Positions 27,384 through 59,754 of a stretch of DNA of 64,000 nucleotides are shown here, one piece after another. Below the pieces are notes generated by a model. That model was not told the origin of the DNA. It was given only the letters and a program-made list of their open reading frames with translations, and ran no database searches. Position 1 is the first letter of the stretch. Each line of letters opens with the position of its first letter. The position numbers and the translations under genes are program-made. Origin of the DNA: Streptomyces sp. NBC_00448 (lineage in GTDB: Bacteria; Actinomycetota; Actinomycetes; Streptomycetales; Streptomycetaceae); assembly GCF_036014115.1 (NCBI RefSeq), contig NZ_CP107913.1:9566501-9630500 (forward strand). The letters are read 5' to 3'.

Positions 27384-27403
27384 GACCGGGGCGGCGGCAG
27401 ACT

Positions 27404-27784
27404 TCAGTCCGCGCCCCTGGAGATCATGTCCAAGAGCGCGGAAGCTTTTCCCATGACCTCCAGGGCGGCCTTGTTCTGGGCCAGTTCCTTCTCGAGCCGC
27501 TCCACCCGGCGACGCAGTTTGTCGTTCTCCGTCTCGGCGTCCGACTTCTTCGGCCTCGCGGGGCTCGTGCGGCGGTCGGCCAGGTTCTCCAGGGCGCCGG
27601 CGTCCCGAGCGGCCCGCCATTCCTTGACGTGAGAGTGGTAGAGGCGCTCTCGGCGCAGGATCGCACCCTTCTCGTTCTTCGGGGCCGCGTCGTACTCGGC
27701 GACGATCCGCAGCTTGTACTCCGGGCTGAAGGAGCGACGCTTCGGCCTGGGCGCGGGATCGGGCGCGGGATTCGTGCTGGTCAT
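27404..27784 (-). CDS. IS3-family OrfA, copy 1
   Basis: The protein has 126 residues. The HTH part reads FSPEYKLRIVAEYDAAPKNE, GAILRRERLYHSHVKEW, and a coiled coil follows (DAETENDKLRRRVERLEKEL). It ends 20 bp before the assigned OrfB start. Confidence 0.9.
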   Translation of the reverse strand: MTSTNPAPDPAPRPKRRSFSPEYKLRIVAEYDAAPKNEKGAILRRERLYHSHVKEWRAARDAGALENLADRRTSPARPKKSDAETENDKLRRRVERLEKELAQNKAALEVMGKASALLDMISRGAD

Positions 27785-40489: not shown

Positions 40490-40509
40490 GACCGGGGCGG
40501 CGGCAGACT

Positions 40510-40890
40510 TCAGTCCGCGCCCCTGGAGATCATGTCCAAGAGCGCGGAAGCTTTTCCCATGACCTCCAGGGCGGCCTTGTTCTGGGCCAGTTCCTTCTCG
40601 AGCCGCTCCACCCGGCGACGCAGTTTGTCGTTCTCCGTCTCGGCGTCCGACTTCTTCGGCCTCGCGGGGCTCGTGCGGCGGTCGGCCAGGTTCTCCAGGG
40701 CGCCGGCGTCCCGAGCGGCCCGCCATTCCTTGACGTGAGAGTGGTAGAGGCGCTCTCGGCGCAGGATCGCACCCTTCTCGTTCTTCGGGGCCGCGTCGTA
40801 CTCGGCGACGATCCGCAGCTTGTACTCCGGGCTGAAGGAGCGACGCTTCGGCCTGGGCGCGGGATCGGGCGCGGGATTCGTGCTGGTCAT
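40510..40890 (-). CDS. IS3-family OrfA, copy 2
   Basis: Its 126 residues are identical to OrfA of copy 1. Confidence 0.9.
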   Translation of the reverse strand: MTSTNPAPDPAPRPKRRSFSPEYKLRIVAEYDAAPKNEKGAILRRERLYHSHVKEWRAARDAGALENLADRRTSPARPKKSDAETENDKLRRRVERLEKELAQNKAALEVMGKASALLDMISRGAD

Positions 40891-42921: not shown

Positions 42922-43926
42922 CTATGAGCTTTGTGGTGTTGGTTCTCGGCGCTTGGCGGGATCGTTGATCCAGGCAGTCCGGGGTATCTCGGGTGGCCGG
43001 GGGCGGCGCCCGAAGCGTTCGGGGTGGTGTGCGTATGCCTGAGCGAGGGTGGCGGCCCGTTGGTCGCGGACCTCGTCGGCGGTGCCGAAATGGATGCTGG
43101 CGGGGGTGTGCCAGGCGATGCCGGAGTGACGGTGCTCGTGGTTGTAGTAGGCGATGAACGCCTCGAACCACTCACGGGCATGGGCCAGGGAGTCGAACCT
43201 TTCCGGGAAGTCCGCCATGTACTTCGTGGTCTTGAACTGGGCCTCGCTGTAAGGGTTGTCGTTGGAGACCTTGGGTCGTGAGTGCGACCGGGTGACGCCC
43301 AGATCGATCAGCAACTGGGACACCTTCTTGGAGGTCATGGACGTGCCGCGGTCGGCGTGCACGGTGTTGGGCACGATGCCGTTGAGGGCGATGGTCTCGC
43401 GGATCAGTTCCTCCGCCCGCTGGGCGGACTCGGCGCGTTCGACGGTGTGGCCGGCGATGTACCGGCTGAAGATGTCGATGATGACGTAGGCGTGGTACCA
43501 GACGCCCTTCGTCGGTCCGGCGACCTTGGTGATGTCCCAGGAGAAGACCTGTGACGGGCCGGTGGCGACCAGTTCCGGCACCACCCGGGGAGGGTGGGTC
43601 GCCTGGCGGCGGCGTTCACCGCTTTGGCTGTGTTCCCGCAGGATCCGGTACATCGTGGAGACCGAGCAGTGGTAGCGGCCGGCATCCAGCTCGCGGGCCC
43701 AGATCTGCGCGGGCGGCAGTTCCGCGTACTCGGCGCTGTTCATCAACTCCATTACGGCCAGGCGCTCTTCGGCGCTCAGGGCGGACGGCTGGGCGCCGGC
43801 CGTGCGGGGTCGGGGTGCGGCCGGTGGCCGCAGCCGGCGGTAGTGGGTGGCGCGGGAGCGGCCGGTCAGTCGGCAAGCGGCCACGACACCTAGCTCGGTC
43901 TCGACGCCGTGGAAGGCGTCGTTCAT
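42922..43926 (-). CDS. IS3-family OrfB transposase, copy 3
   Basis: Identical in protein sequence to copies 1 and 2 and apparently functional. Confidence 0.9.
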   Translation of the reverse strand: MNDAFHGVETELGVVAACRLTGRSRATHYRRLRPPAAPRPRTAGAQPSALSAEERLAVMELMNSAEYAELPPAQIWARELDAGRYHCSVSTMYRILREHSQSGERRRQATHPPRVVPELVATGPSQVFSWDITKVAGPTKGVWYHAYVIIDIFSRYIAGHTVERAESAQRAEELIRETIALNGIVPNTVHADRGTSMTSKKVSQLLIDLGVTRSHSRPKVSNDNPYSEAQFKTTKYMADFPERFDSLAHAREWFEAFIAYYNHEHRHSGIAWHTPASIHFGTADEVRDQRAATLAQAYAHHPERFGRRPRPPEIPRTAWINDPAKRREPTPQSS

Positions 43927-43946
43927 GACCGGGGCGGCGGCAGACT

Positions 43947-44327
43947 TCAGTCCGCGCCCCTGGAGATCATGTCCAAGAGCGCGGAAGCTTTTCCCATGAC
44001 CTCCAGGGCGGCCTTGTTCTGGGCCAGTTCCTTCTCGAGCCGCTCCACCCGGCGACGCAGTTTGTCGTTCTCCGTCTCGGCGTCCGACTTCTTCGGCCTC
44101 GCGGGGCTCGTGCGGCGGTCGGCCAGGTTCTCCAGGGCGCCGGCGTCCCGAGCGGCCCGCCATTCCTTGACGTGAGAGTGGTAGAGGCGCTCTCGGCGCA
44201 GGATCGCACCCTTCTCGTTCTTCGGGGCCGCGTCGTACTCGGCGACGATCCGCAGCTTGTACTCCGGGCTGAAGGAGCGACGCTTCGGCCTGGGCGCGGG
44301 ATCGGGCGCGGGATTCGTGCTGGTCAT
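43947..44327 (-). CDS. IS3-family OrfA, copy 3
   Basis: Identical in protein sequence to the other OrfA copies. Confidence 0.9.
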   Translation of the reverse strand: MTSTNPAPDPAPRPKRRSFSPEYKLRIVAEYDAAPKNEKGAILRRERLYHSHVKEWRAARDAGALENLADRRTSPARPKKSDAETENDKLRRRVERLEKELAQNKAALEVMGKASALLDMISRGAD

Positions 44328-46451: not shown

Positions 46452-49400
46452 GTGGGCCAGGAGTTAATCGGTGGTCGGTTCCGCTTCGTAGGGGCCATCG
46501 GCTCGGGGAACATGGGGGAGGTCAACAAAGCGGAGGACCTTCTGGCCGCTGCGGGAAGCCCGGAACGCACCGTCGCGGTGAAGACGATCCTTCGACGCCG
46601 CTCCGGTGTGCTGGTGGATACCCGGGCCGACACCAAGGCCGTGGACCGCTTCGCCCGCGAAGTGCGCATCATGCGGCGCTTGGACCACCCGCACCTCACC
46701 CGTCTTATCGACGGCGGTGTGGATGACTCCCACGGTGGCCTGCCTTACCTTGCGATGGAGTACCTCGACGGTGAGACCCTGCGTGATCTCATTACGGAGG
46801 AGCAGCAACTGCCCGTCCCCTGGGCCGCTGCCATCGGCGTCCAGATAGCCGACGGACTGTCAGCCGCGCATGCCGCCGGCATCGTGCACCGCGATCTGAA
46901 GCCCGCCAACGTGATGCTGACCCGCGGTGGCACCGTCAAGATCCTTGACTTCGGCATGGGCCGCATCGTCGACGACCCGCAGGAGGCCGACCTCACCAGC
47001 ACCGGTGTCGCCGTCGGCACTGCCCGCTACATGGCGCCGGAGCAGTTCGAGGCCAAGCAGGTCACACAGGCCGCGGATCTGTACGCGCTGGGCTGTGTCC
47101 TGTACGAGATGCTGACCGGAGTTCCGCCGTTCGTCAGCGAGGTGCGCCAGGAACTCGGGCACAAGCACCTTCACCAGGCCCCGACCCCGGTGCGCCTCAT
47201 CCGGTCCGACGTTCCGGCCGAACTCGCCCGTCTCGTTGACCGCCTCCTGGCCAAGGGCCCGGCCGATCGTCCCGCCGACGCCGTCGCCGTCCGCGACGCG
47301 CTCCTCCCACTGGCCCTCGACGGTGACATCCCGCAGCTCCCGGCCTGGGACGCGTTCGACCCCGTGCGGGCCCTGCGGGCCTCCCGGCCCGCCCCCTCTG
47401 CGGCCCCCGTTATGGTCTCCGAGCCGTCCGCCTGCGATGCGGTCCGTCCCGGTTCTGCCCCGGCCGGCATGGATGTGTTCGGCGTCCACCGCAAGCTCAT
47501 CGAGGACTACCGCGCCTTCACCGAGGGCGGCACCGTTGTCCGCGACGACCGCGTCGCGGCGTTCGTTGAGGAGGATCTGAGCGCCAAGTCGCAGTGGCCC
47601 GACCCCTGGCTGTCGCTGAACCCGTTCTTCGCCGGCGGCGGCACCGTCCTGGAACTTGCCGGGCAGGGCGTGCTGCACGAGGAGTGCGCACGCATCTTCC
47701 AGGCCAAGAAGACCGGGGGCGGCACGGTGTGCGACGGCCGTCCGCTGACCTTGCATCAGCACCAGCGCGAAGCGGTGGAGGCAGCCCGCTCGGGTGAGTC
47801 GTATGTGCTGACCACCGGCACCGGCTCCGGCAAGTCCCTTGCCTACATCGTGCCGATCGTCGACAAGGTCCTCAAGGACCGTGAGACCGAGGGCCCCAAA
47901 GCCGGCAAGCGGGTGCGGGCGATCATCGTCTATCCGATGAACGCCCTCGCCAACAGCCAGCTCAAGGAGCTGGAGAAGTACCTGCGCGACGGTTACGGAG
48001 CAGGCCGCGAGCCGGTCACCTTCGCCCGCTACACCGGTCAGGAGGACGACGCCCGCCGCAGGGAGATCCGCGACAACCCGCCGGACATCATCCTCACCAA
48101 CTACGTGATGCTGGAGCTGATGCTCACCCGGCCCGACGACCGTAGGAGCCTCATCAAGATGGCCAGCGGTCTGCAGTTCCTGGTCTTCGACGAGTTGCAC
48201 ACCTACCGCGGCCGCCAGGGCGCCGATGTCGCCCTGCTCATCCGCCGCGTCCGCGAGGCCTGCCAGGCCGATGCGCTCCAGTGCGTCGGTACCTCCGCGA
48301 CCATGTCCACCGAGGGAACGCTGGAGGAGCAGAAGAAGGTCGTCGCGGACGTCGCCTCCACCCTGTTCGGGACCAAGGTCCGTCCCGAGCATGTCATCGG
48401 TGAGACCCTGATCCGGGCCACCGGCAACGTCCCGGACACCGTTTCCGCCGAGCGTCTCCAGGCACCAGCGGCCCCGCGTGCCTACGGCGACCTCGTCCGC
48501 GACCCCCTGGCGCGGTGGATCGAGACCCGCTTCGGCCTGGCCACCGACGCGACCACCGGCCGGCTCGTCCGCCAGAGGCCTGCCAAGATCGAGGAGGCCG
48601 CGCAGGAGCTTGCCGAGCACAGCGGCTTATCCGCGGAGCAGTGCGCCGCCGCTGTCCGCGCCACCCTGGAAGCCGGATCGCAGGCCCGCCACCCCGTCAC
48701 CGAGCGGCCGCTGTTCGCTTTCCGTCTGCACCAGTTCCTGTCCAAGGGCGACACCGTCTACGTGACGCTGGAGGACAAGTCCACTCGCTACCTCACCCGC
48801 GCCTACCAGCTCGAACAGCCCGGCAGCGGCGGCAAACTGCTGATGCCGCTCGCCTTTTGCCGCGAGTGCGGGCAGGAGTACCTGACGGTCTGGCGCGACG
48901 AGAAGAACGGCGACGTGCGCTACGAGGCGCGCCGCGACACCGCCGCGACCGGCGGCCGCCAGGGCGACGGCTACCTCTACATCGACCCCGACCGCCCGTG
49001 GCCCGCCAACCCGCAGTACGCCGTCGACGACCGCCGGCTGCCCGAGTCCTGGCTGGAGCTGGACGCCGCAGGCCAGGAGGTCGTCAAGAAGACCTACCGC
49101 GACCGCGTCCCGCGCGCGGTGACCGTCGACGCGCACGGCTACGAGGGCAGGGGCGAGCTGCACGCCGCGTTCATCCCCTCGCCCTTCCTGTTCTGCCTGC
49201 ACTGCGGCGTCGCCTACGAGCAGACCCGCGGCAAGGACTTCGCGAAGCTGGCCACGCTCGACCAGGAGGGGCGTTCCTCGGCGACCTCCCTCATATCGGC
49301 CTCCGTGGTGCGGTCCCTGAAGTCGGTGCCCGAACAGGCCCTGGACAAGGAGGCGCGCAAGCTCCTCACGTTCGTCGACAACCGCCAGGACGCCTCCCTG

Positions 49401-52400
49401 CAGGCCGGCCACTTCAACGACTTCGTCCAGATCACGCAACTGCGCGGCGCCCTGTACCGGGCAGCACTGGACGCGGGGGAGGAGGGCCTGCGTCACGAAG
49501 AGCTCGCCTTGTGCGTCACGAACGGGATCGGCCTGGCGCCCCTCGACTACACGGGCGAGAGCGACCTTGCGCCCTCACTGGCCCGCAGCGCGGCGAAGAC
49601 CCTTCGCGATGTGATCGCCTTCCGGCTCTACCTGGACCTGGAGCGCGGCTGGCGCATCACCATGCCCAACCTGGAGCAGACCGGCCTGCTGGAGATCGAC
49701 TACGAGGACCTGGCATGGGTCGCCGGCACGCAGGGCCGCTGGACCAATGCCCACCAGGCGCTGCGCGACGCCGACCCCGCCCTGCGCGCCGAAGTGACGA
49801 AGGCGCTGCTCAACGAGATGCGCCGGGCCCTGGCCATCGACGTCTCCTACTTCCGCGACGACTTCGACTCGCTCCAGCGGGCCAGCGAGGAGCGCCTCAT
49901 CGATCCCTGGGTACTCTCCCCCTCCGACAAGCCCAGGATCGGCACCGCATACCCGCACCCCTCCCGTCCCGGCCTGGACCGCGCGAGCCTGTTCCTGTCG
50001 GCGCGCGGCAAGTTCGGCAAGTACCTGCAGCGCACCGACCGGGCCTTCAAGAAGCTCGGCAACGAGGACCTCCAGCTCGTCATCGAGGACTTGCTGAAGG
50101 TCCTCGCCACGGCCGGCCTGGTCAAGGAGGTCGCCGACACCCCGCGGCGGGCCGGCCGCTTCCACCGCCCGACGGGACCCGCGGTCACCGGCTACCGGGT
50201 CGCCGCCCAGTCCCTGATCTGGCGTGCGGGCAAGGGCGAGACAGGAGCCCACGACCCTCTGACCCGCACCTACCAGAGCGGCGACGGCCCGCGCGTCAAC
50301 ACCTTCTTCCGCGAGCTGTACCAGAGCGCGGCCGCCGAGCTGGCCGGCCTGTTCGCCCGCGAGCACACCGCGCAGGTGGCCCCGGAGGAGCGCGAGCGGC
50401 GCGAGGAGGCGTTCCGCAAGGCCGAGCTGAAGCTGCTCTACTGCTCGCCGACGATGGAGCTCGGCGTCGACATCTCCTCGCTGAACGCGGTGATGATGCG
50501 CAACGTCCCGCCGACGCCCGCCAACTACGCCCAGCGCAGCGGCCGCGCCGGCCGCAGCGGCCAGCCCGCCCTCGTCACCACGTACTGTGCGACGGGCAAC
50601 AGCCACGACCAGTACTACTTCCGCCGCTCCGAGCGCATGGTCGCCGGCGCCGTCGCGCCCCCGCGCCTGGACCTCGCCAACGAAGACCTGGTCCTGTCTC
50701 ACCTCCAGGGCATCTGGATCGCGGAGACCGGCCTGAAGCTGGGCCGCGCCTTACCCCAGGTCCTCGATGTCTCGTTCGCCGACACAGGGGAACGCCCCCA
50801 GCCCGAGCTGAGGCTCCTGCCGGACTTCCTCGCCGCCTCCCTCGACGCTGACGCGCAGCGCCGCACGGTCGATTCCGCGCTGCGGGTACTCGCCCCCCTG
50901 CTGCCGAAGTTCGCCGAGACCACGTGGTGGCACGACGACTGGATACAGGACCGCGTAACGACCGTGCCCGAACGGTTCGACCGGGCCTTCGACCGGTGGC
51001 GTGACCTGTTCACGGCCGCGCTCGACGACCAGTACATCCAGAACAAGCGCCGCCTCGACTACAGCCTGACGGAGGGCGATCGGATCCGGGCCAACGCCCG
51101 TCGCCGCGAGGCAGAGACCCAGCTGAACCTGCTGATGAACGAGAGCGCTGACAGCAAGTCGGTCCTGTCCGACTTCAACCCATACCGCTACCTCGCCTCC
51201 GAGGGCTTCCTGCCCGGCTACTCCTTCCCACGCCTGCCGCTCGCCGCTTACATTCCCACAACCGGCCGCCGCCGCGGCGAGGGCGACTACCTGCAGCGTC
51301 CCCGCTTCCTCGCCATCCGCGAGTTCGGCCCCGGGTCGCTCATCTACCATGAGGGCGCCCGCTACCAGGTCACGCGCATCCAGCTCCCGCCGGACGCCTC
51401 GGGCGATCTCGCCACCACCGAGGCCCGCCGCTGCGCGAGCTGCGGCTACCACCACGACCCCAAAGAGCGCGCCGACCGCTGCGAGATGTGCGCCGAGCCC
51501 CTGGGCTCGGCCACGTACGGCCTTCTGCACCTGCACACCGTCTACACCACCCGCCGCGAGCGGATCTCCTCCGACGAGGAAGAGCGCCGCCGCGCCGGCT
51601 TCCGCCTGGAGACCTCGTACCGTTTCCAGGACCACGGCACCCGCAAGGGCCGCCAGGACGCCATGGTCGCCGACACGTCGGGGAAGCCGATCGCACAGGT
51701 GGCGTACGGCGACTCGGCGACCGTCCGGATCACCAACACCGGCCGCGTCCGGGCGAAGAAGGACGAGCCCGCCGGCTACTGGCTCGACCTCGGCGACGGC
51801 CGCTGGATGAACGACAAGGACGCCTCCGAAGCGTCCGGCGACACCAGCGAGATGCCCCGCATCGACGCCGACGGCAACGAGAAGCGCCGCAAGAAACGCG
51901 TCATCCCTTACGTCGAGGACCGCCGCAACGTCCTCGTTGCCACCCTCGACGAGCCGCTGCCCGAGCCGATCGCGCTGTCGCTGATGTACGCCCTGGAGCG
52001 GGGTATCGAGGCCACCTTCGAGCTGGAGGACTCCGAGCTCAGCAGCGAACTCCTCCCGCCGGACGACGGCCCGCGCGACCGCATCCTGTTCACGGAGGCC
52101 GCCGAGGGCGGCGCGGGCGTGCTCCGCCGCCTCCAGTCGGAGAAGGACGCCCTGGCGAAGGCGGCCTTGCAGGCGCTCGCCATCTGCCACTTCGACGAGG
52201 ACGGCAACGACCTGGGCGGCCCGCACCCTGACCGGCCGTGTGCCCGCGGCTGCTACGAGTGCCTCCTGACCTACGGCAACCAGCTGAACCACGTCCAGAT
52301 CGACCGGCACACCGTGAAGGACCTGCTGCTGCGGCTCGCGTCAGCGACGGCGACGCGCGAAAGGCGCGGCGAGTCGCGGTCGGAGCAGTTCAAGCGGCTG

Positions 52401-52751
52401 CTGGAGCAGACTTCCGGCGCGCCGACCCCGGTCGAGGTCGCTGCCGGCGAGGCCATCGCCCAGGACGACCTGCTGACCTGGCTCAAGGCCAAGGGGCTGC
52501 GCCTCCCCGACGACGGCGCCACGCTGATCACCGAGGCGAACGCCCAGGCCGACTACGTGTACCGCCTGGGGAGCGCCAACCTCGCCGTCTTCGTCGACCT
52601 GCCCGGCACGGAGATGACGGCCCTGCGCGACGAGGACGCCGAGGAGCGACTGCTCGACGCCGGCTGGGACGTCGTCCGCTTCCCGCACGACGCCGACTGG
52701 GACGCCATCGCCGCCGAGCGCCCCCGCGACTTCGGCACCGCCGCCCACTGA
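46452..52751 (+). CDS. Ser/Thr protein kinase fused to a DEAD/DEAH-DUF1998 helicase (DISARM DrmA/B- or Druantia DruE-like)
   Basis: This is a single 2,099-residue protein from the GTG at 46452, with GAGGAGG five bases upstream. Residues 8-285 are a Hanks-type kinase with all key residues: GSGNMGEV loop, Lys44 in VAVKTIL, HRDLKPANV (Asp148) and DFG (Asp166). A superfamily-2 helicase starts near 435: Walker A TTGTGSGKS (about 454), DELH in FLVFDELHTYRG (about 578), VGTSATMS, and motif VI QRSGRAGRSGQ (about 1361). A DUF1998-type region has C-x2-C pairs CASCGY and CEMC (about 1660) and CARGCYECLLTYGNQ (about 1929). The last 80 residues (YVYRLGSANLAVFVDLPG ... LLDAGWDVVRFP) resemble a degenerate endonuclease-like end seen in such helicases. 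It heads the operon with the SNF2 and methylase genes. The fused kinase is unusual. Confidence 0.88.
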   Translation: MGQELIGGRFRFVGAIGSGNMGEVNKAEDLLAAAGSPERTVAVKTILRRRSGVLVDTRADTKAVDRFAREVRIMRRLDHPHLTRLIDGGVDDSHGGLPYLAMEYLDGETLRDLITEEQQLPVPWAAAIGVQIADGLSAAHAAGIVHRDLKPANVMLTRGGTVKILDFGMGRIVDDPQEADLTSTGVAVGTARYMAPEQFEAKQVTQAADLYALGCVLYEMLTGVPPFVSEVRQELGHKHLHQAPTPVRLIRSDVPAELARLVDRLLAKGPADRPADAVAVRDALLPLALDGDIPQLPAWDAFDPVRALRASRPAPSAAPVMVSEPSACDAVRPGSAPAGMDVFGVHRKLIEDYRAFTEGGTVVRDDRVAAFVEEDLSAKSQWPDPWLSLNPFFAGGGTVLELAGQGVLHEECARIFQAKKTGGGTVCDGRPLTLHQHQREAVEAARSGESYVLTTGTGSGKSLAYIVPIVDKVLKDRETEGPKAGKRVRAIIVYPMNALANSQLKELEKYLRDGYGAGREPVTFARYTGQEDDARRREIRDNPPDIILTNYVMLELMLTRPDDRRSLIKMASGLQFLVFDELHTYRGRQGADVALLIRRVREACQADALQCVGTSATMSTEGTLEEQKKVVADVASTLFGTKVRPEHVIGETLIRATGNVPDTVSAERLQAPAAPRAYGDLVRDPLARWIETRFGLATDATTGRLVRQRPAKIEEAAQELAEHSGLSAEQCAAAVRATLEAGSQARHPVTERPLFAFRLHQFLSKGDTVYVTLEDKSTRYLTRAYQLEQPGSGGKLLMPLAFCRECGQEYLTVWRDEKNGDVRYEARRDTAATGGRQGDGYLYIDPDRPWPANPQYAVDDRRLPESWLELDAAGQEVVKKTYRDRVPRAVTVDAHGYEGRGELHAAFIPSPFLFCLHCGVAYEQTRGKDFAKLATLDQEGRSSATSLISASVVRSLKSVPEQALDKEARKLLTFVDNRQDASLQAGHFNDFVQITQLRGALYRAALDAGEEGLRHEELALCVTNGIGLAPLDYTGESDLAPSLARSAAKTLRDVIAFRLYLDLERGWRITMPNLEQTGLLEIDYEDLAWVAGTQGRWTNAHQALRDADPALRAEVTKALLNEMRRALAIDVSYFRDDFDSLQRASEERLIDPWVLSPSDKPRIGTAYPHPSRPGLDRASLFLSARGKFGKYLQRTDRAFKKLGNEDLQLVIEDLLKVLATAGLVKEVADTPRRAGRFHRPTGPAVTGYRVAAQSLIWRAGKGETGAHDPLTRTYQSGDGPRVNTFFRELYQSAAAELAGLFAREHTAQVAPEERERREEAFRKAELKLLYCSPTMELGVDISSLNAVMMRNVPPTPANYAQRSGRAGRSGQPALVTTYCATGNSHDQYYFRRSERMVAGAVAPPRLDLANEDLVLSHLQGIWIAETGLKLGRALPQVLDVSFADTGERPQPELRLLPDFLAASLDADAQRRTVDSALRVLAPLLPKFAETTWWHDDWIQDRVTTVPERFDRAFDRWRDLFTAALDDQYIQNKRRLDYSLTEGDRIRANARRREAETQLNLLMNESADSKSVLSDFNPYRYLASEGFLPGYSFPRLPLAAYIPTTGRRRGEGDYLQRPRFLAIREFGPGSLIYHEGARYQVTRIQLPPDASGDLATTEARRCASCGYHHDPKERADRCEMCAEPLGSATYGLLHLHTVYTTRRERISSDEEERRRAGFRLETSYRFQDHGTRKGRQDAMVADTSGKPIAQVAYGDSATVRITNTGRVRAKKDEPAGYWLDLGDGRWMNDKDASEASGDTSEMPRIDADGNEKRRKKRVIPYVEDRRNVLVATLDEPLPEPIALSLMYALERGIEATFELEDSELSSELLPPDDGPRDRILFTEAAEGGAGVLRRLQSEKDALAKAALQALAICHFDEDGNDLGGPHPDRPCARGCYECLLTYGNQLNHVQIDRHTVKDLLLRLASATATRERRGESRSEQFKRLLEQTSGAPTPVEVAAGEAIAQDDLLTWLKAKGLRLPDDGATLITEANAQADYVYRLGSANLAVFVDLPGTEMTALRDEDAEERLLDAGWDVVRFPHDADWDAIAAERPRDFGTAAH

Positions 52752-52783
52752 CGCCCGATCACCACAAGGACGCGACGACTCAC

Positions 52784-55714
52784 ATGGCACTCACCTACTC
52801 CGCCGGTTCCCTGGTGACGGCACGCGGCCGCGAATGGGTGGTGCTCCCCGAGAGCGCCCCCGACATGCTCGTCCTCCGCCCCCTCGGCGGCTCCGACGAC
52901 GACATCGCCGCCGTCTTCCCCACCTTCGAGGAGGTCAAGGGCGCCGAATTCGCCGCGCCCGAGCCCTCCGACCTCGGCGACCAGCGCGCCGCCGGCCTGC
53001 TGCGCACCGCACTGCGCATCGGCTTCCGCTCCGGCGCCGGCCCCTTCCGCTCGCTCGCGGGCATCGCCGTGGAGCCCCGCGCGTACCAGCTCGTCCCGCT
53101 GCTCATGGCCCTGCGCCAGCAGACCGTACGCATGCTCATCTCCGACGACGTCGGCATCGGCAAGACGATCGAAGCGGGTCTCATCGCCAGCGAACTGCTC
53201 GCCCAGGGCGAGGCGACCGGCCTCGCCGTGCTCTGCTCGCCCGCGCTCGCCGAGCAGTGGCAGGGCGAACTGCGCACCAAGTTCGGCATCGACGCCGAAC
53301 TCGTCCTCGCCTCCACGGTCTCGCGCCTGGAACGCGGCCTGGACCTCGGCCAGTCCCTCTTCGACAAGTACCCACACGTCATCGTCTCCACGGACTTCAT
53401 CAAATCCACCCGCCACCGCGACGACTTCGTGCGCCACTGCCCCGACCTGGTGATCGTGGACGAGGCCCACACCTGCGTCGCGGCCGACGACACATCCACG
53501 AACACCCAGGACCAGCTGCGCTACGAACTCCTCAAGCGCGTCTCGGCGGACGCCGGCCGCCACCTTCTGCTGGTCACGGCGACGCCCCACTCCGGCAAGG
53601 AATCCGCGTTCCGTAACCTGCTCGGCCTGGTCAAGCCCGAACTGGCGAAAGTGAACCTGGACAGCGAAGCGGGCCGCGTCCTGCTGGCCCAGCACTTCGT
53701 CGCGCGCAAGCGGGCCGACGTACGCCAGTACCTCACCAAGGCAGACGGCCTCAGCGACGACAGCCTCGCCGAGAAGACCGCGTTCCCCTCGGACCGCTAC
53801 TTCAAGGACGAGACCTACAAGCTCGCCCCCGCCTACCGCGCCCTGCTCGACGACGCCATCGCCTACGCCAGCGACCGCGTCGAGGCCGCCGGCTCCCAGG
53901 GCAGGCGCGAGGCCCGGATCGCCTGGTGGTCCGCGATCGCCCTGCTGCGCTCCCTGGTCTCCTCGCCCCGCGCCGCCGCACAGACCCTGCGCACCCGCTC
54001 GGCCGCTGCGGTCGCCGCCTCCGCCGAGGAAGCCGACCGGCTGGGCGCCCCGCTGACCAGCGACTCCGCCGACAGCGACGCCCTGGAGGGCATGGACGTC
54101 GCCCCGGGCGCCGAGACCGAGGAGCACGCGGGATCACGGCTCGCCGAACTCGCCACGCGCGCCACCGAGCTGGAAGGCCCGGAGCAGGACCTGAAGCTGA
54201 AGGCGCTCATCAAGCACCTCAAGGCACTGCTCGCCGACGGCTACAACCCGATCGTGTTCTGCCGCTACATCCCGACCGCCGAATACCTCGCCGACCAGCT
54301 CGCCAACGACCCGGAGACCAAGAAGCGCGGTCCGCTCGGCGCCAAGACCGTCGTCAAGGCCGTCACCGGCACCCTCTCCCCGCAGCAGCGCCTCCAGCGG
54401 ATCGAGGAACTGGCGACCGAGGCAGGCGAGGACGCCGCCGCCCGCCGCGTCCTGATCGCCACCGACTGCCTCTCCGAGGGCGTCAACCTCCAGCACCACT
54501 TCGACGCCGTCCTCCACTACGACCTGGCCTGGAACCCGACCCGCCACGACCAGCGCGAGGGCCGCGTCGACCGGTACGGCCAGAAGAAGGACCAGGTCCG
54601 CGTCATCACCCTGTACGGCGACGACAACGGCATCGACGGCAAGGTCCTCGAAGTCCTCATCAAGAAGCACCGCCAGATCAAGAAGGACCTCGGCATCTCC
54701 GTCTCCGTGCCCGACGAGATGTCCACCGGCGTCACGGACGCCATCGTCGAGTGGCTGCTGCTGCGCGGCCGCCAGGGCGAACAGGAGACCCTGTTCGGCT
54801 CCGACGCCCTCCAGCAGAGCTTCGCCGACCTGGAACAGGACTGGAACTCGGCCGCCGAACGCGAGAAGGCCTCCCGCTCCCGCTTCGCCCAGCGCTCCAT
54901 CCACCCCGAGGACGTCGCCCGCGAGGTCGCCTCCGTGCGCGAGGCCCTCGGCAGCGCCGGCGAGATCGCCACCTTCGTACGCGACTGCCTGAACGCCCTC
55001 GGCGGCGTACTGCGCGTTACGGGCGCGGACTTCACCGCCGAGGTCGGCGGCACTCCGGCCGGCCTGCGCGACGCGCTCGCCCCGGTCGTCGGCGCGGACA
55101 TCATCGAGAAGGACCGCCCCATTCCGTTCCGGGCCGACCCCGCGGTGGCGCGCGGCGAAGCCGCCCTCGTCCGCACCGACCCGGTCGTCGGCGCCCTGGC
55201 CGGACATGTCCTGAACGCGGCACTGGACACCCAGGCCGACGGCGTCCGCCCGGCCCGCCGCTGCGGCGTCATCACGACGGACGCGGTCGCCACCCGCACG
55301 ACGCTGCTGCTCGTGCGCTACCGCTTCCACCTCACGCTGCCCTCGCGCAGCGGCGACAAGCAGCTCGTGGCGGAGGACGCCCGCCTGCTCGCCTTCCACG
55401 GCTCACCGAAGAACGCGCAGTGGCTGACGCAGGAACAGGCCGTGGCACTGCTCGACGCCACCGCCACCACGAACACGGCCCCGGACTTCGGGATGCGGAC
55501 CATGACCCGCATCCTCGCCCAGCTTCCCGAGGTGACCGGCTACCTGGAGTCGTACGGCGACGAGCTCGCCGCCGGCCTCGACGAGTCCCACCGCCGCGTC
55601 CGCAAGGCCGCCGACGACATCGTCCGAGGCCTTCGCGTCACCGCCCAGAAGCCCGCCGACATCCTCGGCGTCTACGTCTACCTGCCCGCCGCCGTGTCCG
55701 GAGAGGCCGCCTGA
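52784..55714 (+). CDS. drmD: SNF2-type helicase, DISARM DrmD-like
   Basis: The ATG at 52784 gives 976 residues, starting 32 bp after the kinase-helicase stop. The SNF2/RapA-like ATPase is complete: motif I SDDVGIGKTIEAGL (about 121), DEAH in LVIVDEAHTCVA (about 225), TATPHSGK, and C-terminal motifs CLSEGVNLQ and HDQREGRVDRYGQ (about 590). The N-terminal 60 residues carry the small domain (LVTARGREWVVLPES) found in DrmD-like proteins, and a long helical C-terminal region follows the helicase. In DISARM, DrmD works with the methylase DrmMI in the class 1 gene set, and that neighbourhood is reproduced here. The symbol is a best guess from domain order and the next gene. Its stop overlaps the methylase start (TGATG). 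Confidence 0.82.
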   Translation: MALTYSAGSLVTARGREWVVLPESAPDMLVLRPLGGSDDDIAAVFPTFEEVKGAEFAAPEPSDLGDQRAAGLLRTALRIGFRSGAGPFRSLAGIAVEPRAYQLVPLLMALRQQTVRMLISDDVGIGKTIEAGLIASELLAQGEATGLAVLCSPALAEQWQGELRTKFGIDAELVLASTVSRLERGLDLGQSLFDKYPHVIVSTDFIKSTRHRDDFVRHCPDLVIVDEAHTCVAADDTSTNTQDQLRYELLKRVSADAGRHLLLVTATPHSGKESAFRNLLGLVKPELAKVNLDSEAGRVLLAQHFVARKRADVRQYLTKADGLSDDSLAEKTAFPSDRYFKDETYKLAPAYRALLDDAIAYASDRVEAAGSQGRREARIAWWSAIALLRSLVSSPRAAAQTLRTRSAAAVAASAEEADRLGAPLTSDSADSDALEGMDVAPGAETEEHAGSRLAELATRATELEGPEQDLKLKALIKHLKALLADGYNPIVFCRYIPTAEYLADQLANDPETKKRGPLGAKTVVKAVTGTLSPQQRLQRIEELATEAGEDAAARRVLIATDCLSEGVNLQHHFDAVLHYDLAWNPTRHDQREGRVDRYGQKKDQVRVITLYGDDNGIDGKVLEVLIKKHRQIKKDLGISVSVPDEMSTGVTDAIVEWLLLRGRQGEQETLFGSDALQQSFADLEQDWNSAAEREKASRSRFAQRSIHPEDVAREVASVREALGSAGEIATFVRDCLNALGGVLRVTGADFTAEVGGTPAGLRDALAPVVGADIIEKDRPIPFRADPAVARGEAALVRTDPVVGALAGHVLNAALDTQADGVRPARRCGVITTDAVATRTTLLLVRYRFHLTLPSRSGDKQLVAEDARLLAFHGSPKNAQWLTQEQAVALLDATATTNTAPDFGMRTMTRILAQLPEVTGYLESYGDELAAGLDESHRRVRKAADDIVRGLRVTAQKPADILGVYVYLPAAVSGEAA

Positions 55715-58700
55715 TGTCCGCCACCACCCGCAACCAGGTCTTCTCCGCTGTCCACACCGTCGGCGCGCTCCTGCCCGTCGACATGCTGGTCCGCATCAGC
55801 GAGGGCAAGGACGTCCCCGGCACCAAGCCCGCCGACTACGGACTGCCCACCTCCCGCTCGGTCCGCGACGAGGCCGAACGCAGCTGGGAGTACCTCAAGC
55901 CGCTCTGGCGCGACGTGCGCAAGCGCCTTTCCGAGAACCCGGAGACCGGCGCCCCGGCCAGCGACCCGACTGGCATCGCCGGCAACGACTGGCTGGCCCC
56001 GCTCTGGCGCGAACTCGGCTTCGGCCCGCTCACGCCGATGGGCCAGTCCGGCATCGCGGCCGACTCCGAGGAGGAGAAGAAGTTCCTCGTCTCCCACCGC
56101 TGGCGGCACGTCCTCATCCACCAGCCGGCCTGGAACGCCGACCTCGACCGGCGGCCGGGCGGCGCGGGCACGGTCCCGCCGCAGTCGATGCTCCAGGAGT
56201 GCCTGAACCGCACGGAGGCCCACCTGTGGGGCGTCCTCACCAACGGCCGCCAGGTGCGGCTACTGCGTGACTCCAGCGCGCTGGCGACCGCCTCGTACGT
56301 CGAGTTCGACCTCGAGGCGATCTTCGACGGCGAGCTCTTCAGCGAATTCGTGCTGCTCTACCGGCTCCTGCACGTCTCCCGCTTCGAGGTGGGGGAGGAC
56401 GCCGCGCCGTCCGCGTGCTGGCTGGAGAAGTGGCGCACCGAGGCCATCGCCTCCGGCACCCGCGCCCTGGACCAGCTCCGCAAGGGCGTCCAGACCGCCA
56501 TCACCACGCTGGGCACGGGCTTCCTCAAGCACCCCGCCAACCGTGAGCTGCGCGAAACGCTGGACGTCCAGACCTTCCATTACGCCCTGCTGCGGACGGT
56601 CTACCGGATGCTGTTCCTCTTCGTCGCCGAGGACCGCGAGGCGCTGCTGATGCCGACCGCGGACGCCGGCGCCAAGGAGCGCTACGCCACCTACTTCTCC
56701 TCCGCCCGGCTGCGCCGCCAGGCCCAGCGACGCCGCGGAACCTCCCACGGCGACCTCTACCAGGCGCTGCGCTTCGTCCTGTCCGGCCTCGGCAACGACG
56801 ACGGCCGCCCGGAACTCGGGCTGCCCGCCCTCGGTGGCATCTTCGACGACACCGAGACCGACAAGCTCCTGCACGACCTCGCCCTGTCCAACGAGCCCCT
56901 GCTCGACGCCGTACGCGCCCTGTCGATCGTCCGCGACACCACCTCCCGGCGCAACCGCGTCGTCGACTACCGCCACCTGGACGCCGAGGAACTCGGCTCC
57001 ATCTACGAGTCCCTGCTGGAACTCGTCCCCAAGCACAACGCCACCGACCGCACCTTCGAACTCGTCGAGCTGGCCGGCAACACCCGCAAGACCACGGGCT
57101 CCTACTACACCCCCTCCTCACTCATCGACTGCCTGCTCGACTCCGCCCTCGACCCCGTCATCGACGACGCCGTCAAGCGAGGCGAGATCCGCGCCACCCG
57201 CGCCGGCCAGCCCGACGCCCGCGACGCCATCGTCGACGAACTGCTGTCCCTGACGGTCTGCGACCCCGCCTGCGGCTCCGGCCACTTCCTCGTCGCCGCC
57301 TCCCGCCGCATCGCCAAGCGCGTCGCCGCCGTCCGCGACCAGAACCCTGAGCCGACGATCGACGCCGTACGCCACGCCCTCCACGAGGTCGTCGCCCGCT
57401 GCATCTACGGCGTGGACCTCAACCCGATGGCCGTCGAACTCGCCAAGGTCTCCCTGTGGCTCGAGGCCCTTGAACCCGGCAAGCCGCTGGGCTTCCTCGA
57501 CGCCCACATCAAGCACGGCAACGCACTGCTGGGGGCGACCCCAGCCCTGCTGGCGGGCGGCATACCCGACGACGCCTTCAAGCCGATCGAGGGCGACGAC
57601 AGAAAGATCGCTTCGGCTCTGAAGAAGCGGAACGCCACCGAACGCGGCGGCCAGCTCAGCTTCCACACCGAAGACCGCATCTGGGTCTCCAACGCCTCCT
57701 TTGCGGCTAGCCTGCGCGACATCACCGACGCCCCGGCCGACACCCTGCGCGACGTCCGCATCCAGTCCAGCCGCTTCCGCGACCTGGAACAGTCCGCGGA
57801 CTACCTCCACGCCCTCAACGCCTCCGACGCCTGGTGCGCAGCCTTCGTCTGGCCCAAGGTCCAGAGCGCCCCTACCCCGGTGACGGAGGGCGTCTTCCGC
57901 GACCTCCAGAACCCCGGCGGCGGCATACCGGCGACCACACGAGACGAGATCGTCCGTATCGCCCAGCAGTACAAGTTCTTCCACTGGCACCTGGAGTTCC
58001 CCGACGTCTTCCTCGTCCCCGCGACTGCGGACGCTAGCGTCGACACGTATGTCGGCTGGGCCGGCGGCTTCTCCTGCGTGCTGGGGAACCCGCCGTGGGA
58101 GCGCATCAAGCTCCAGGAGCAGGAGTTCTTCGCTCAGCGTGACGCGGCCATCGCCGCCGCCCCGAACGCCGCCGCCCGAAAGAATCTCATCGCAGACCTA
58201 CCGGCAACGAATCCCGAGCTCTTCGCCGAGTTCACCGCTGCCAAGCGCCGCGCCGAGGGCGAGAGCCAGTTCCTACGCTCCTCGGTGCGCTACCCGCTCA
58301 CGGGCCGAGGCGACATCAACACCTACGCCGTCTTCGCCGAGACCGACCGCAGTCTCATGGGCCCCACGGGTCGGACCGGCGTGATCGTGCCCACAGGTAT
58401 CGCCACCGACGCCACCACACAATTCTTCTTCAAGGACCTCGTCCAGCGCGGCTCACTCGCCTCGCTCTACGACTTCGAGAACGCCGCGCCGCTCTTTCCC
58501 GGCGTGCACCGCTCATTCAAGTTCAGCCTGCTCACCCTCGCCGGTCGCACCGCCCGCGAACCCGCCGCAACGTTTGCCTTCTTCCTCCACGATCCGGCTG
58601 AACTCGACGCGGCGGACAAGCGCTTCATCCTCACCCCGGAGGAGATCACCCTCCTCAACCCCAACACTGGTACCTGCCCGGTCTTCCGCACCCGTCGCGA

Positions 58701-59754
58701 CGCCGAAATCACCCTCGGCATCTACCGCCGCGTCCCCGTCCTCATCAAGGAGGGCGACCCCAACGGCAACCCCTGGGGCCTGTCGTTTATGACGATGTTC
58801 CACATGTCGAATGACTCGCACCTCTTCCATACCCGCGACCAGCTCGAAGCCGACGGCTGGACCCTCACCGGTAACACCTTCACCCGCGGCGCGGCCCGGA
58901 TGCTCCCGCTCTACGAAGCGAAGATGCTGCACCACTACGACCACCGTTGGGCGACCTACGACCTAGACGGCTCCACCCAAGACTTCACCCTCGCGGAGAA
59001 GCACGATCCTTCTGCGGTGGTCCTTCCGCGCTACTGGGTGGCTGAGCCTGAGGTCGACGCCCAATCCGCCCACAAGTCCTGGGACCGTGACTGGCTTCTA
59101 GGCTGGCGCGACATCTGCCGCGCCACTGACGAGCGGACTGCGATTTCGTTCGCTTTTCCGAAGTCCGCCGTCGGCAACAAGGTTCCTTTGATGTGCGCCA
59201 AACAAGAGCCGTGGACGGCACTTACCCTTGTCGCCTGCCAGACGTCATTCGTACATGACTTCGCAAGCCGTCAAAAGGTGGGCGGAGTAACGATGAATTT
59301 CTTCATCTGGCAGCAACTTCCCGTTCTGCTTCCGGGAGTCCTTCAGCCCTTCGAGGATTTCATCGTGGCCCGCGTTTTTGAGCTCACCTATACCGCCTGG
59401 GACATGGTTGCCCTTTCCCGTGACCTCGGCGACGTCGGAGAGCCCTTCCGCTGGGACGAGGAACGCCGCGCCGTCATCCGGGCCGAATTGGACGCACTCT
59501 TCTTCCACCTCTACGGCGTCGCCCGCGAAGACGTGGACTACATCCTCGATACTTTCCCCATCGTGAAGCGCAAGGATGAGGCCAAGTATGGCTCCTACCG
59601 CACCAAGGAGTTGATCCTCGACCTCTACGACCGCATGGCCGCAGCTGGCGTCTCCCTCGATACCCCCCTCGTCGACGGCGAGAACTTCACCTCCGCCCTC
59701 ACCCCGCTCCCCGGCCACGGTCCGCGACACCCCGCCCGAAGCGAATCTGACTGA
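55714..59754 (+). CDS. drmMI: Eco57I-type adenine-specific DNA methylase, DISARM DrmMI/PglX-like
   Basis: The product has 1,346 residues starting on the overlapping TGATG. The methylase core has motif I VCDPACGSGHFLVAA (about 517), preceded by the TGSYYTPSSLIDCLL entry motif, and motif IV NPPWERIK (about 792), the N6-adenine signature. A long N-terminal region contains SHRWRHVLIHQPAW and HLWGVLTNGRQVRLLRDS, as in PglX/DrmMI-type proteins. The C-terminal 400 residues include FDFP-type target-recognition-like stretches (KSWDRDWLLGWRDICRATDE) and end in a helical domain. It should methylate adenine in a specific site to mark self DNA. The remaining uncertainty is whether the system is DISARM proper or a BREX-like relative. 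Confidence 0.85.
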   Translation: MSATTRNQVFSAVHTVGALLPVDMLVRISEGKDVPGTKPADYGLPTSRSVRDEAERSWEYLKPLWRDVRKRLSENPETGAPASDPTGIAGNDWLAPLWRELGFGPLTPMGQSGIAADSEEEKKFLVSHRWRHVLIHQPAWNADLDRRPGGAGTVPPQSMLQECLNRTEAHLWGVLTNGRQVRLLRDSSALATASYVEFDLEAIFDGELFSEFVLLYRLLHVSRFEVGEDAAPSACWLEKWRTEAIASGTRALDQLRKGVQTAITTLGTGFLKHPANRELRETLDVQTFHYALLRTVYRMLFLFVAEDREALLMPTADAGAKERYATYFSSARLRRQAQRRRGTSHGDLYQALRFVLSGLGNDDGRPELGLPALGGIFDDTETDKLLHDLALSNEPLLDAVRALSIVRDTTSRRNRVVDYRHLDAEELGSIYESLLELVPKHNATDRTFELVELAGNTRKTTGSYYTPSSLIDCLLDSALDPVIDDAVKRGEIRATRAGQPDARDAIVDELLSLTVCDPACGSGHFLVAASRRIAKRVAAVRDQNPEPTIDAVRHALHEVVARCIYGVDLNPMAVELAKVSLWLEALEPGKPLGFLDAHIKHGNALLGATPALLAGGIPDDAFKPIEGDDRKIASALKKRNATERGGQLSFHTEDRIWVSNASFAASLRDITDAPADTLRDVRIQSSRFRDLEQSADYLHALNASDAWCAAFVWPKVQSAPTPVTEGVFRDLQNPGGGIPATTRDEIVRIAQQYKFFHWHLEFPDVFLVPATADASVDTYVGWAGGFSCVLGNPPWERIKLQEQEFFAQRDAAIAAAPNAAARKNLIADLPATNPELFAEFTAAKRRAEGESQFLRSSVRYPLTGRGDINTYAVFAETDRSLMGPTGRTGVIVPTGIATDATTQFFFKDLVQRGSLASLYDFENAAPLFPGVHRSFKFSLLTLAGRTAREPAATFAFFLHDPAELDAADKRFILTPEEITLLNPNTGTCPVFRTRRDAEITLGIYRRVPVLIKEGDPNGNPWGLSFMTMFHMSNDSHLFHTRDQLEADGWTLTGNTFTRGAARMLPLYEAKMLHHYDHRWATYDLDGSTQDFTLAEKHDPSAVVLPRYWVAEPEVDAQSAHKSWDRDWLLGWRDICRATDERTAISFAFPKSAVGNKVPLMCAKQEPWTALTLVACQTSFVHDFASRQKVGGVTMNFFIWQQLPVLLPGVLQPFEDFIVARVFELTYTAWDMVALSRDLGDVGEPFRWDEERRAVIRAELDALFFHLYGVAREDVDYILDTFPIVKRKDEAKYGSYRTKELILDLYDRMAAAGVSLDTPLVDGENFTSALTPLPGHGPRHPARSESD

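What the first reader, a model, noticed from the sequence alone, without database searches (positions are those of the whole stretch)
46452..59754. Three-gene defence-type operon with a Ser/Thr kinase fused to a DUF1998 helicase
Seen: one 2,099-residue frame encodes a complete kinase (Lys44, HRD, DFG), an SF2 helicase (TTGTGSGKS, DELH, QRSGRAGRSGQ) and zinc/DUF1998 motifs, followed by a SNF2 helicase and an Eco57I-type adenine methylase, closely spaced (32 bp) and overlapping (TGATG). Known: DISARM uses a helicase (DrmA), a DUF1998 protein (DrmB), the SNF2 protein DrmD and methylase DrmMI; Druantia uses the large DUF1998 helicase DruE; Pgl/BREX uses the kinase PglW with methylase PglX. Inference: this is a compact hybrid in which phospho-signalling is built into the helicase, a possible distinct subtype.
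Basis: partly seen in the sequence, partly recalled or inferred. Interest (0 to 1): 0.85.

Follow-up and report, generated by a model that had tools for sequence, protein, structure and literature searches.

The report
Kinase-fused ARMADA phage-defence operon
A soil bacterium carries a three-gene anti-virus system of a recently described type (ARMADA) in which a protein kinase, a signalling enzyme, is fused to the front of the DNA-motor protein, as it is in related operons of many actinobacteria; this suggests that DNA defence here is under built-in phosphorylation control.

Summary
In detail: a 2,099-aa kinase-helicase, a SNF2 helicase and an Eco57I-type methylase in tandem (46452-59754). The core is not new in kind: it matches ARMADA Type I (Bell et al., bioRxiv 2025, PMC12458937), which has the same three genes in the same order. 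The helicase matches ArmC better than DruE, and DrmA/DrmB not at all; the same genome has a separate DISARM locus. New, as far as the preprint's main text shows ('kinase' 0 occurrences; supplements not seen): a PknB-like kinase fused before the helicase in one actinobacterial clade (77 of 80 named loci; two others are cut by contig ends). Its catalytic residues are invariant in 82 rows (81 distinct), and the helicase's old start Met remains at the junction (80 of 82). In 58 of 59 named Streptomyces loci, and in the window, the C-terminal Vsr-type nuclease has lost its motif His. The methylase's presumed recognition region differs between near-identical operons (96% helicase, 16% recognition region), as expected for methylation-based self-recognition. 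Most likely: ARMADA restriction with a cis-acting kinase switch; kinase role, substrate and defence activity are untested. Verdict: new variant of a known kind.

The parts
46452..52751 (+). Kinase + YprA/DUF1998 (ArmC/DruE-like) helicase + C-terminal Vsr-like domain, 2,099 aa, GTG start
46461..47315 (+). Hanks-type Ser/Thr kinase domain (aa 4-288); K44, E70, HRD 146-148, N153, DFG 166-168, activation-segment T182
   Evidence: Pfam Pkinase 161.5 bits; best solved match PknB, 162.6 bits; K44, E70, HRD, K150, N153, DFG invariant in 82 rows, 81 distinct
47316..47468 (+). Variable linker (aa 289-339) between kinase and helicase
   Evidence: conservation 0.42-0.48 in the windows from aa 301 and 326
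47469..47471 (+). Met340: position where the kinase-less homologues begin; ATG in 80 of 82 fused rows, without Shine-Dalgarno signal in the window
47757..48308 (+). RecA1 (DEAD) domain, Walker A GTGSGKS and DELH
   Evidence: Pfam DEAD; both motifs in 82 of 82
50349..50561 (+). RecA2 (Helicase_C) domain
   Evidence: Pfam Helicase_C
51981..52265 (+). MZB / DUF1998 zinc-binding domain
   Evidence: Pfam MZB (own-genome scan); fold match of this part to MrfA and DrmAB chain B
52431..52736 (+). Vsr-like (PD-(D/E)xK superfamily) domain, aa 1994-2095; the His of the D-G-P-x-H motif is missing here, so predicted catalytically impaired
   Evidence: VIA-align Z 8.2, rmsd 2.7, 87 aligned to I-Bth0305I 3r3p_A; motif comparison
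52784..55714 (+). SNF2/RapA-type (BrxHII/ArmA/DrmD-like) helicase, 976 aa
   Evidence: PADLOC PDLC02853 1993 bits (labelled DpdE); NCBIfam DrmD 301.6 bits, below its cut-off of 610
55714..59754 (+). PglX/Eco57I-type N6-adenine DNA methyltransferase, 1,346 aa; DPACGSG and NPPW motifs
   Evidence: both motifs in 78 of 78
58861..59373 (+). Hypervariable presumed target-recognition region of the methylase (aa 1050-1220)
   Evidence: mean identity 0.34-0.37 in 50-aa windows 1051-1200 against 0.85-0.91 in windows 501-600, on 861 close pairs

Best explanation
The operon is an ARMADA Type I defence system of an actinobacterial sub-clade whose ArmC-like (YprA-family) helicase carries an N-terminal PknB-like Ser/Thr kinase. 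Proposed working: (1) the PglX-like methylase marks a specific host sequence, whose identity differs from strain to strain (supported by the hypervariable recognition region). (2) The SNF2 motor and the YprA helicase engage unmarked incoming DNA, perhaps in one machine with the methylase (inferred from ARMADA/DISARM/BREX precedent). (3) DNA engagement or another infection cue turns on the kinase in cis; it phosphorylates itself, the linker or a partner and so licenses or releases the helicase (inferred; the kinase stands directly before the helicase's own N-terminus, the end where the preprint places the NTR strand that packs into RecA2 and, in DISARM Class 1, an autoinhibitory trigger loop). 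(4) Phage DNA replication is blocked by translocation or cleavage. In this window the fused Vsr-like nuclease looks catalytically damaged, so blocking without its own cut, or cutting by another nuclease, is more likely. Shown here: architecture, conservation, recognition-region variation, single fused clade, motif loss. Not shown: defence activity, kinase activity, substrate.
For: Gene set and order equal the preprint's Type I description. A profile of this helicase family scores the ArmC-position helicase of E. coli ATCC 8739 at 336 bits, the DruE-position one at 270, and DrmA/DrmB of the window's own genome not at all at E<=1. Of 80 named loci, 77 have the fusion. Kinase catalytic residues are invariant in 82 rows (81 distinct), while the fused kinases range from 58 to 86% identical to the window's. 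Fused rows form one branch, support 100, with one kinase-less row (L053) inside. Fused kinase domains form one clade, 100/99. Junction Met is ATG in 80 of 82, SD-like signals in 3 of 82 against 218 of 1640 control positions, i.e. a relic of the old start. Recognition region: 85 pairs (among all 2,628 pairs of 73 rows: 72 loci plus the window) have helicase >90% and recognition region <40% identical; Spearman helicase~SNF2 0.92, helicase~recognition region -0.10. Precedents: ARMADA II protects by a non-abortive mechanism and needs Walker and NPPW residues (PMC12458937 abstract and sec. 6); trigger loop and NTR (secs. 7, 9); PglW kinase activity is essential for phage resistance in Streptomyces (PMC4365076 abstract); the Hanks kinase YabT is DNA-activated (PMC6333020 abstract).
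Against: I found no experiment on a Type I or kinase-fused member; the preprint tested Type II, whose fourth gene (ArmD) is needed for defence and is absent here. Kinase activation by DNA and its substrate are pure inference. One member inside the clade (L053) lacks the kinase (tblastn found no remnant), so the kinase can be dispensed with. The window's SNF2 protein is slightly closer to the DrmD of its own genome (171 bits by BLAST, 184.5 by profile) than to ArmA (155; 170.2), and by BLAST the methylase is slightly closer to the methylase-like ORF of that DISARM locus (115) than to ArmB (104), though the profile prefers ArmB (163.6 against 116.9). No pair of distant operons (helicase <74%) shares a recognition region >80% identical, so exchange between distant clades is not seen. 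Placement in ARMADA rests on profile scores and gene order, not on a tree with the authors' references.
Confidence: 0.6

Rival explanations
1. The kinase is the effector: after the helicase detects foreign DNA it phosphorylates host or phage proteins to stop infection, replacing the nuclease.
For: Kinase residues are invariant in 82 rows, while the Vsr motif is lost in 65 of 89 fused rows (63 of 87 distinct), in two separate branches of the tree.
Against: 24 of 89 fused rows keep an intact Vsr motif. Motif loss also occurs in kinase-less lineages (15 of 40 rows, or 12 of 37 after dropping the Streptomyces rows L032, L044 and L053), so loss is not tied to the kinase. ARMADA II is reported as non-abortive.
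Confidence: 0.15
2. The kinase is housekeeping-level regulation (stress or growth-phase gating of an otherwise ordinary ARMADA, for example to prevent self-attack), with no infection-specific role.
For: Streptomyces has many such kinases (55 Pkinase matches in this genome). A SigA-like sigma-factor gene stands divergently upstream in 23 of 133 loci searched, hinting at regulation. One kinase-less member exists (L053).
Against: Fusion in cis, retained across many genera, would be unusual for a general regulator; Pfam shows no known sensor domain in the protein (membrane segments were not tested).
Confidence: 0.2
3. It is a DISARM Class 1 or Druantia subtype rather than ARMADA.
For: SNF2 matches the DrmD model over nearly its whole length (301.6 bits) and is slightly closer to the own genome's DrmD than to ArmA; the helicase's best PADLOC match is a DruE3 model (338.4 bits).
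Against: SNF2 is below the DrmD cut-off (610). DrmA and DrmB do not match, and the separate DISARM locus in the same genome passes the cut-offs for DrmA 1354.5/950, DrmB 669.7/240 and DrmD 1238.7/610. ArmC beats DruE against the wide helicase profile, and the partners are not those of Druantia.
Confidence: 0.05

Closest known systems
ARMADA Type I (Bell et al. 2025 preprint, PMC12458937)
   Same: Three genes in the same order (YprA-like helicase, BrxHII/RapA-like helicase, PglX-like methylase); helicase with DUF1998 in the same chain and a C-terminal Vsr-like domain.
   Different: N-terminal kinase fused (not mentioned in the preprint's main text); Vsr motif degenerate in the window and in 58 of 59 named Streptomyces loci, where the preprint predicts an active nuclease.
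ARMADA Type II (E. coli ATCC 8739 / NCTC 12900)
   Same: Homologues of ArmA, ArmB, ArmC (genes assigned by me from the locus order and the preprint).
   Different: Order ArmA-ArmB-ArmC-ArmD and a fourth gene ArmD (UvrD-type), absent here.
DISARM Class 1
   Same: SNF2 (DrmD-like) and methylase (DrmMI-like) homologues.
   Different: No DrmA or DrmB here, and no PLD-type gene among the 10 neighbours scanned; a separate DISARM locus exists in the same genome.
Druantia (DruE)
   Same: Large DUF1998 helicase; DruE3 338 bits.
   Different: SNF2 and methylase partners instead of Druantia partners; Druantia partner models were only sought through PADLOC on the three proteins.
BREX-2 / Pgl (PglW, PglX)
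   Same: Ser/Thr kinase plus PglX-like methylase in a Streptomyces phage-defence setting.
   Different: Kinase is not PglW (51.5 of 990 bits); no PglZ among the 10 neighbours scanned.

Membership tests
ARMADA Type I | YprA-family helicase carrying DUF1998 in the same chain | tested here: met
   DEAD, Helicase_C and MZB over cut-off; ArmC 336 bits > DruE 270 > DrmA/DrmB none; C-terminal model matches MrfA Z 11.8, rmsd 3.9, 176 aligned
ARMADA Type I | BrxHII/RapA-like SNF2 helicase as partner | tested here: met
   BrxH and RapA models match, RapA below its equivalog cut-off; solved RapA chains match; homologous to ArmA, 155 bits
ARMADA Type I | PglX-like methylase as partner | tested here: met
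   PglX 52.6 bits (below its equivalog cut-off of 400), Eco57I 60.3; homologous to ArmB, 104 bits
ARMADA Type I | Gene order helicase, SNF2, methylase; no ArmD | tested here: met
   the downstream ORFs scanned are transposase, YceI and IstB
ARMADA Type I | C-terminal predicted active Vsr nuclease | tested here: inconclusive
   Vsr-like fold present, but the motif His is missing in the window
ARMADA Type I | BrxA-like insertion after RecA1; placement in the authors' YprA tree | not tested
   only the C-terminal 460 residues of the helicase protein were modelled; reference set not available
ARMADA Type I | Anti-phage activity | not testable with these tools
   needs plaque assays
DISARM Class 1 | DrmA and DrmB present | tested here: not met
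   helicase matches PADLOC DrmA at 46.8 bits only; DrmA/DrmB of the own genome not matched at E<=1
DISARM Class 1 | DrmD over curated cut-off | tested here: not met
   301.6 of 610 bits; DrmD at the other locus of the same genome 1238.7
BREX-2 / Pgl | PglW over cut-off and PglZ in the locus | tested here: not met
   PglW 51.5 of 990 bits; no PglZ among 10 neighbouring ORFs
Dpd | DpdE over curated cut-off and other Dpd genes | tested here: not met
   NCBIfam DpdE 164.2 of 500, although one PADLOC model labelled DpdE scores 1993; no Dpd-type gene recognised among the 10 neighbours scanned with Pfam
Druantia | DruE with Druantia partner genes (DruH, DruM/F/G or DruA-D; list recalled) | tested here: inconclusive
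   DruE models match; partner models were not sought beyond PADLOC on the three proteins and Pfam on 10 neighbours

The most novel reading that the evidence does not exclude
Kinase-ARMADA is a distinct, phosphorylation-driven form of restriction: an actinobacterial lineage captured a kinase at the front of its DNA-sensing helicase, and in Streptomyces phospho-signalling has since taken over from the decayed Vsr nuclease as the step that stops phage, so that foreign unmethylated DNA is converted directly into a kinase signal.
Probability: 0.15. Interest if true: 0.8.

Novelty: new variant of a known kind. Interest (0 to 1): 0.5.

Why it matters
It would link two defence strategies usually kept apart, methylation-guided DNA targeting and protein phosphorylation, in one polypeptide, and give a clean genetic test (kinase-dead, or the helicase alone from the conserved junction Met) of what kinases do in DNA-based immunity, a question raised by PglW. 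It also shows that a defence nuclease motif can decay while the rest of the system stays conserved.

Tried and rejected
Rejected: DISARM, BREX/Pgl and Dpd membership (see Membership tests); Druantia membership judged unlikely but not fully tested. Rejected: an internal start producing a separate helicase from Met340; SD-like signals in 3 of 82 against 218 of 1640 control positions. The helicase half places L024 next to the fused clade (SH-aLRT 85, not starred); the best kinase tree does not join them, and joining is not rejected either (AU p 0.289). A linker motif (P-x-W...D/N-P) occurs in 71 of 82 fused and 0 of 37 other kinases, but the L024 kinase, by eye, does not match it as written. Led nowhere: fold search with the methylase N-terminus (no PDB match at E<=0.001); phage records with the SNF2 protein (no match); an HTH/DUF5753 neighbour family in 31 of the loci compared, a kind I recall as very common in Streptomyces. 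A link between kinase gain and Vsr motif loss is not claimed, because losses occur without the kinase too.

Limits of counts: one search kept 80 of 211 relatives, the most similar. In one search, KH rows L023, L024, L032, L044 and L053 were skipped. In one search six rows with partial helicases were dropped (L023, L024, L152-L155); of the 40 'none' rows three are Streptomyces (L032 and L044 cut by the contig end, L053 a real absence). Two pairs of loci are the same sequence fetched twice (L020/L031, L081/L190): 82 rows are 81 distinct, 129 are 127 distinct. The tree used 62 of 129 rows. In one search one row (F_L194) was a wrong piece, and one of 87 rows (L194) a wrongly chosen antisense frame; neither is counted. 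'Intact' means the regular expression D-G-P/S-x-H in the motif stretch. L155 is a helicase fragment of 612 aa, 57% identical and without kinase, so the identity border between fused and unfused is not sharp for fragments.
Full report
WHAT IS THERE. Protein 1 (46452-52751, 2,099 aa) holds a complete PknB-like kinase, a superfamily-2 helicase and a DUF1998/MZB zinc domain; protein 2 (52784-55714) is a SNF2/RapA-type helicase; protein 3 (55714-59754) an Eco57I/PglX-type adenine methylase. The window lies near the right end of a 9.65 Mb single contig, which ends about 22 kb beyond the operon. Among 10 flanking ORFs scanned with Pfam are rve transposases, an endonuclease VII-like and a weak phage-integrase match (below cut-off) upstream, and a transposase pair, YceI and IstB downstream.

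SPREAD. In a 35-genome sample of the genus, the window's own included, five genomes have a full-length fused protein, one has it split over two frames (G032), and one (G019) has a 54%-identical helicase split over two frames with a separate divergent kinase. A scan of named genomes found 211 relatives of the helicase part; the best 80 were kept. Of these, 77 have the kinase in the same frame, two are cut by the contig end (L032, L044) and one lacks it (L053). All 80 have the SNF2 gene next (two cut), and 78 the methylase after it; in the other two (L066, L070) the contig ends first. Genera include Streptomyces, Kitasatospora, Micromonospora, Nonomuraea, Lentzea, Nocardia, Amycolatopsis, Saccharothrix, Actinomadura, Pseudonocardia and Marinactinospora.

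THE CORE WITHOUT KINASE. A phylum sample gave 23 of 396 genomes with the helicase and 21 of 396 with the SNF2 protein, the window's own counted. Of 20 loci fetched from it, one is fused (L137); in the other 19 BLAST showed no kinase above 70 bits, although some are cut by contig ends. A class sample gave 29 of 345; of 20 loci fetched, the six with helicase identity of 57% or more are fused and the 14 at 54% or less are not. On plasmids the helicase occurs in 71 records and the SNF2 protein in 70, mostly outside actinobacteria: Deinococcus, Thermus, cyanobacteria, Pseudomonadota and others. Of eight regions read, two (Nostoc, Thermus) have the reversed order; Hydrogenimonas reaches the start of its circular record before a methylase; in the other five the third large gene follows helicase and SNF2, annotated as methylase in four, as hypothetical in Roseomonas, and after a small toxin-antitoxin pair in Acidithiobacillus. 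Neighbours include McrBC (Deinococcus), DISARM drmA/drmB (Nocardioides) and a Lit-family protein (Roseomonas).

ONE FUSED CLADE. On a tree of 62 of 129 helicase rows, the fused rows form one branch with support 100, with L053 inside (FastTree, kinase and Vsr columns left out). Fused kinase domains form one clade against 33 other kinases of this and related genomes (100/99). Kinase-less helicases start at the position of Met340, and that Met is ATG in 80 of 82 fused rows, with SD-like signals in only 3: the kinase was placed in front of an intact helicase gene. Kinase residues K44, E70, HRD, K150, N153 and DFG are invariant in 82 rows, 81 distinct.

NUCLEASE. A model of aa 1640-2099 (mean pLDDT 70.5; 80-91 in the ten-residue blocks of model residues 371-450) matches MrfA (Z 11.8, rmsd 3.9, 176 aligned) and chain B of DrmAB (Z 10.2, rmsd 4.4, 177 aligned) in its first part; LuxS proteins also match that part at Z up to 8.6, so such values can be a common arrangement. 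Model residues 362-456 (aa 2001-2095) match the homing endonuclease I-Bth0305I catalytic domain (Z 8.2, rmsd 2.7, 87 of 97 aligned), with VRR_NUC (Z 7.1, rmsd 3.6, 95 aligned) and Hjc resolvases (Z about 5) lower. This agrees with the preprint's Vsr assignment for ARMADA. The motif D..VFVDGPxH...RD is intact in 24 of 89 fused and 25 of 40 unfused rows; in 65 fused rows, the window included, it is not. By genus among the named loci: lost in 58 of 59 Streptomyces and in Kitasatospora, Marinactinospora and Wenjunlia; intact in the other 18. On the tree this takes two branches within the fused clade.

METHYLASE. DPACGSG and NPPW are present in 78 of 78. Among 861 pairs with 78-95% identical helicases, windows 501-600 are 85-91% identical but aa 1051-1200 only 34-37%; aa 651-1000 are also variable (41-66%). 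The extreme pair (L039, L064) has 96% helicase, 98% methylase N-terminus and 16% recognition-region identity. No distant pair shares a recognition region above 80%. The N-terminal 470 residues gave a good model (pLDDT 84.2) without a solved match at E<=0.001.

WHAT IT IS. Bell et al. (PMC12458937; abstract and sections 5, 6, 7, 9, 12 and the figure legends read, sections 3, 8 and 10 in passages) describe ARMADA Type I as the same genes, generally in this order. I took the Type II locus of E. coli ATCC 8739 from its record, assigning ArmA-D and DruE by gene order and the preprint's legend; the DruE so assigned matches solved chain 9tu7_Y over its full length (4862 bits), which is also the best large solved relative of the window's helicase (154 bits). 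The wide helicase profile scores ArmC 336 bits, DruE 270, DrmA/DrmB nothing. The SNF2 protein, by contrast, is marginally closer to the own genome's DrmD than to ArmA. That genome has a DISARM locus at 4.51-4.52 Mb with DrmA, DrmB and DrmD over cut-off; its presumed methylase and DrmC ORFs had no NCBIfam match at E<=1e-30. PADLOC's model PDLC02853, labelled DpdE, gives the SNF2 protein 1993 bits, which looks like a mislabelled model: the curated NCBIfam DpdE gives 164 of 500.

NOVELTY. The core is known. The kinase fusion is not in the preprint's main text ('kinase' 0, 'phosphor' 0 occurrences). Searches for DISARM/DUF1998/kinase, DrmD/kinase/Streptomyces, Actinobacteria/DISARM-like/kinase, SNF2/DUF1998/protein kinase, DruE/DrmD/DrmMI, ARMADA/YprA and ARMADA/kinase listed no paper whose title or abstract start describes it. 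Those were listings in an open-access library only, and the preprint's supplements were not available. Hence: new variant of a known kind.

MECHANISM. Shown by sequence: conserved kinase, motors and methylase; variable specificity region; nuclease motif loss. Inferred: methylation marks self; the motors engage unmarked DNA; the kinase gates them. The Pgl precedent (PMC4365076 abstract: PglW kinase activity essential, thought to lead to activation of PglX) and the DNA-dependent kinase YabT (PMC6333020 abstract) make a DNA-gated switch plausible, not proven.

Noticed in passing
L020 4165-7221 (-) and the same place in other Streptomyces loci, e.g. L027, L029, L033, L069, L072: A SigA-like sigma-factor gene (about 1,000-aa ORF with Sigma70 regions 2-4 and a long extra C-terminus) is transcribed divergently upstream of the kinase-helicase: tblastn matches in 23 of 133 loci (L020 and L031 are the same sequence), not in the window. 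A possible dedicated regulator.
   Followed up: partly
L061 22330-24174 and others (L038, L059, L067, L074, L138, L201, L204, L156): McrB-like AAA genes match near the operon in 20 of 133 loci, fused and unfused: a recurrent type IV restriction neighbour.
   Followed up: partly
L242 (G000:C1:4505001-4525000): The same genome has a separate DISARM locus of the DrmD (Class 1) kind: DrmA, DrmB, DrmD over cut-off.
   Followed up: yes
   Followed up: partly
L035 22391-23710 (+): A protein of about 440 aa without Pfam match directly downstream of the methylase; tblastn matches in 17 of 133 loci, all in Streptomyces records.
   Followed up: no
L156 15119-18670 (Deinococcus radiodurans R1 plasmid MP1): The D. 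radiodurans R1 copy of the operon has its methylase annotated as two separate ORFs (DR_RS17025, DR_RS17030), followed by an IS630 transposase: possibly a broken system.
   Followed up: no
window 26379-27620, 39485-40726, 42922-44163 (all -): Three 413-aa ORFs of equal length; the two scanned are rve transposases with equal scores. Likely copies of one insertion sequence near the contig end.
   Followed up: no
PADLOC model PDLC02853: Labelled DpdE but matches this SNF2 protein over nearly its full length at 1993 bits, so the label may mislead annotation of these operons.
   Followed up: partly
L066 (contig CAJCJE010000769.1): A fused kinase-helicase on a 9.9 kb contig filed as Candidatus Melainabacteria, 71% identical to the window's helicase: probably a mis-binned actinobacterial contig.
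   Followed up: no
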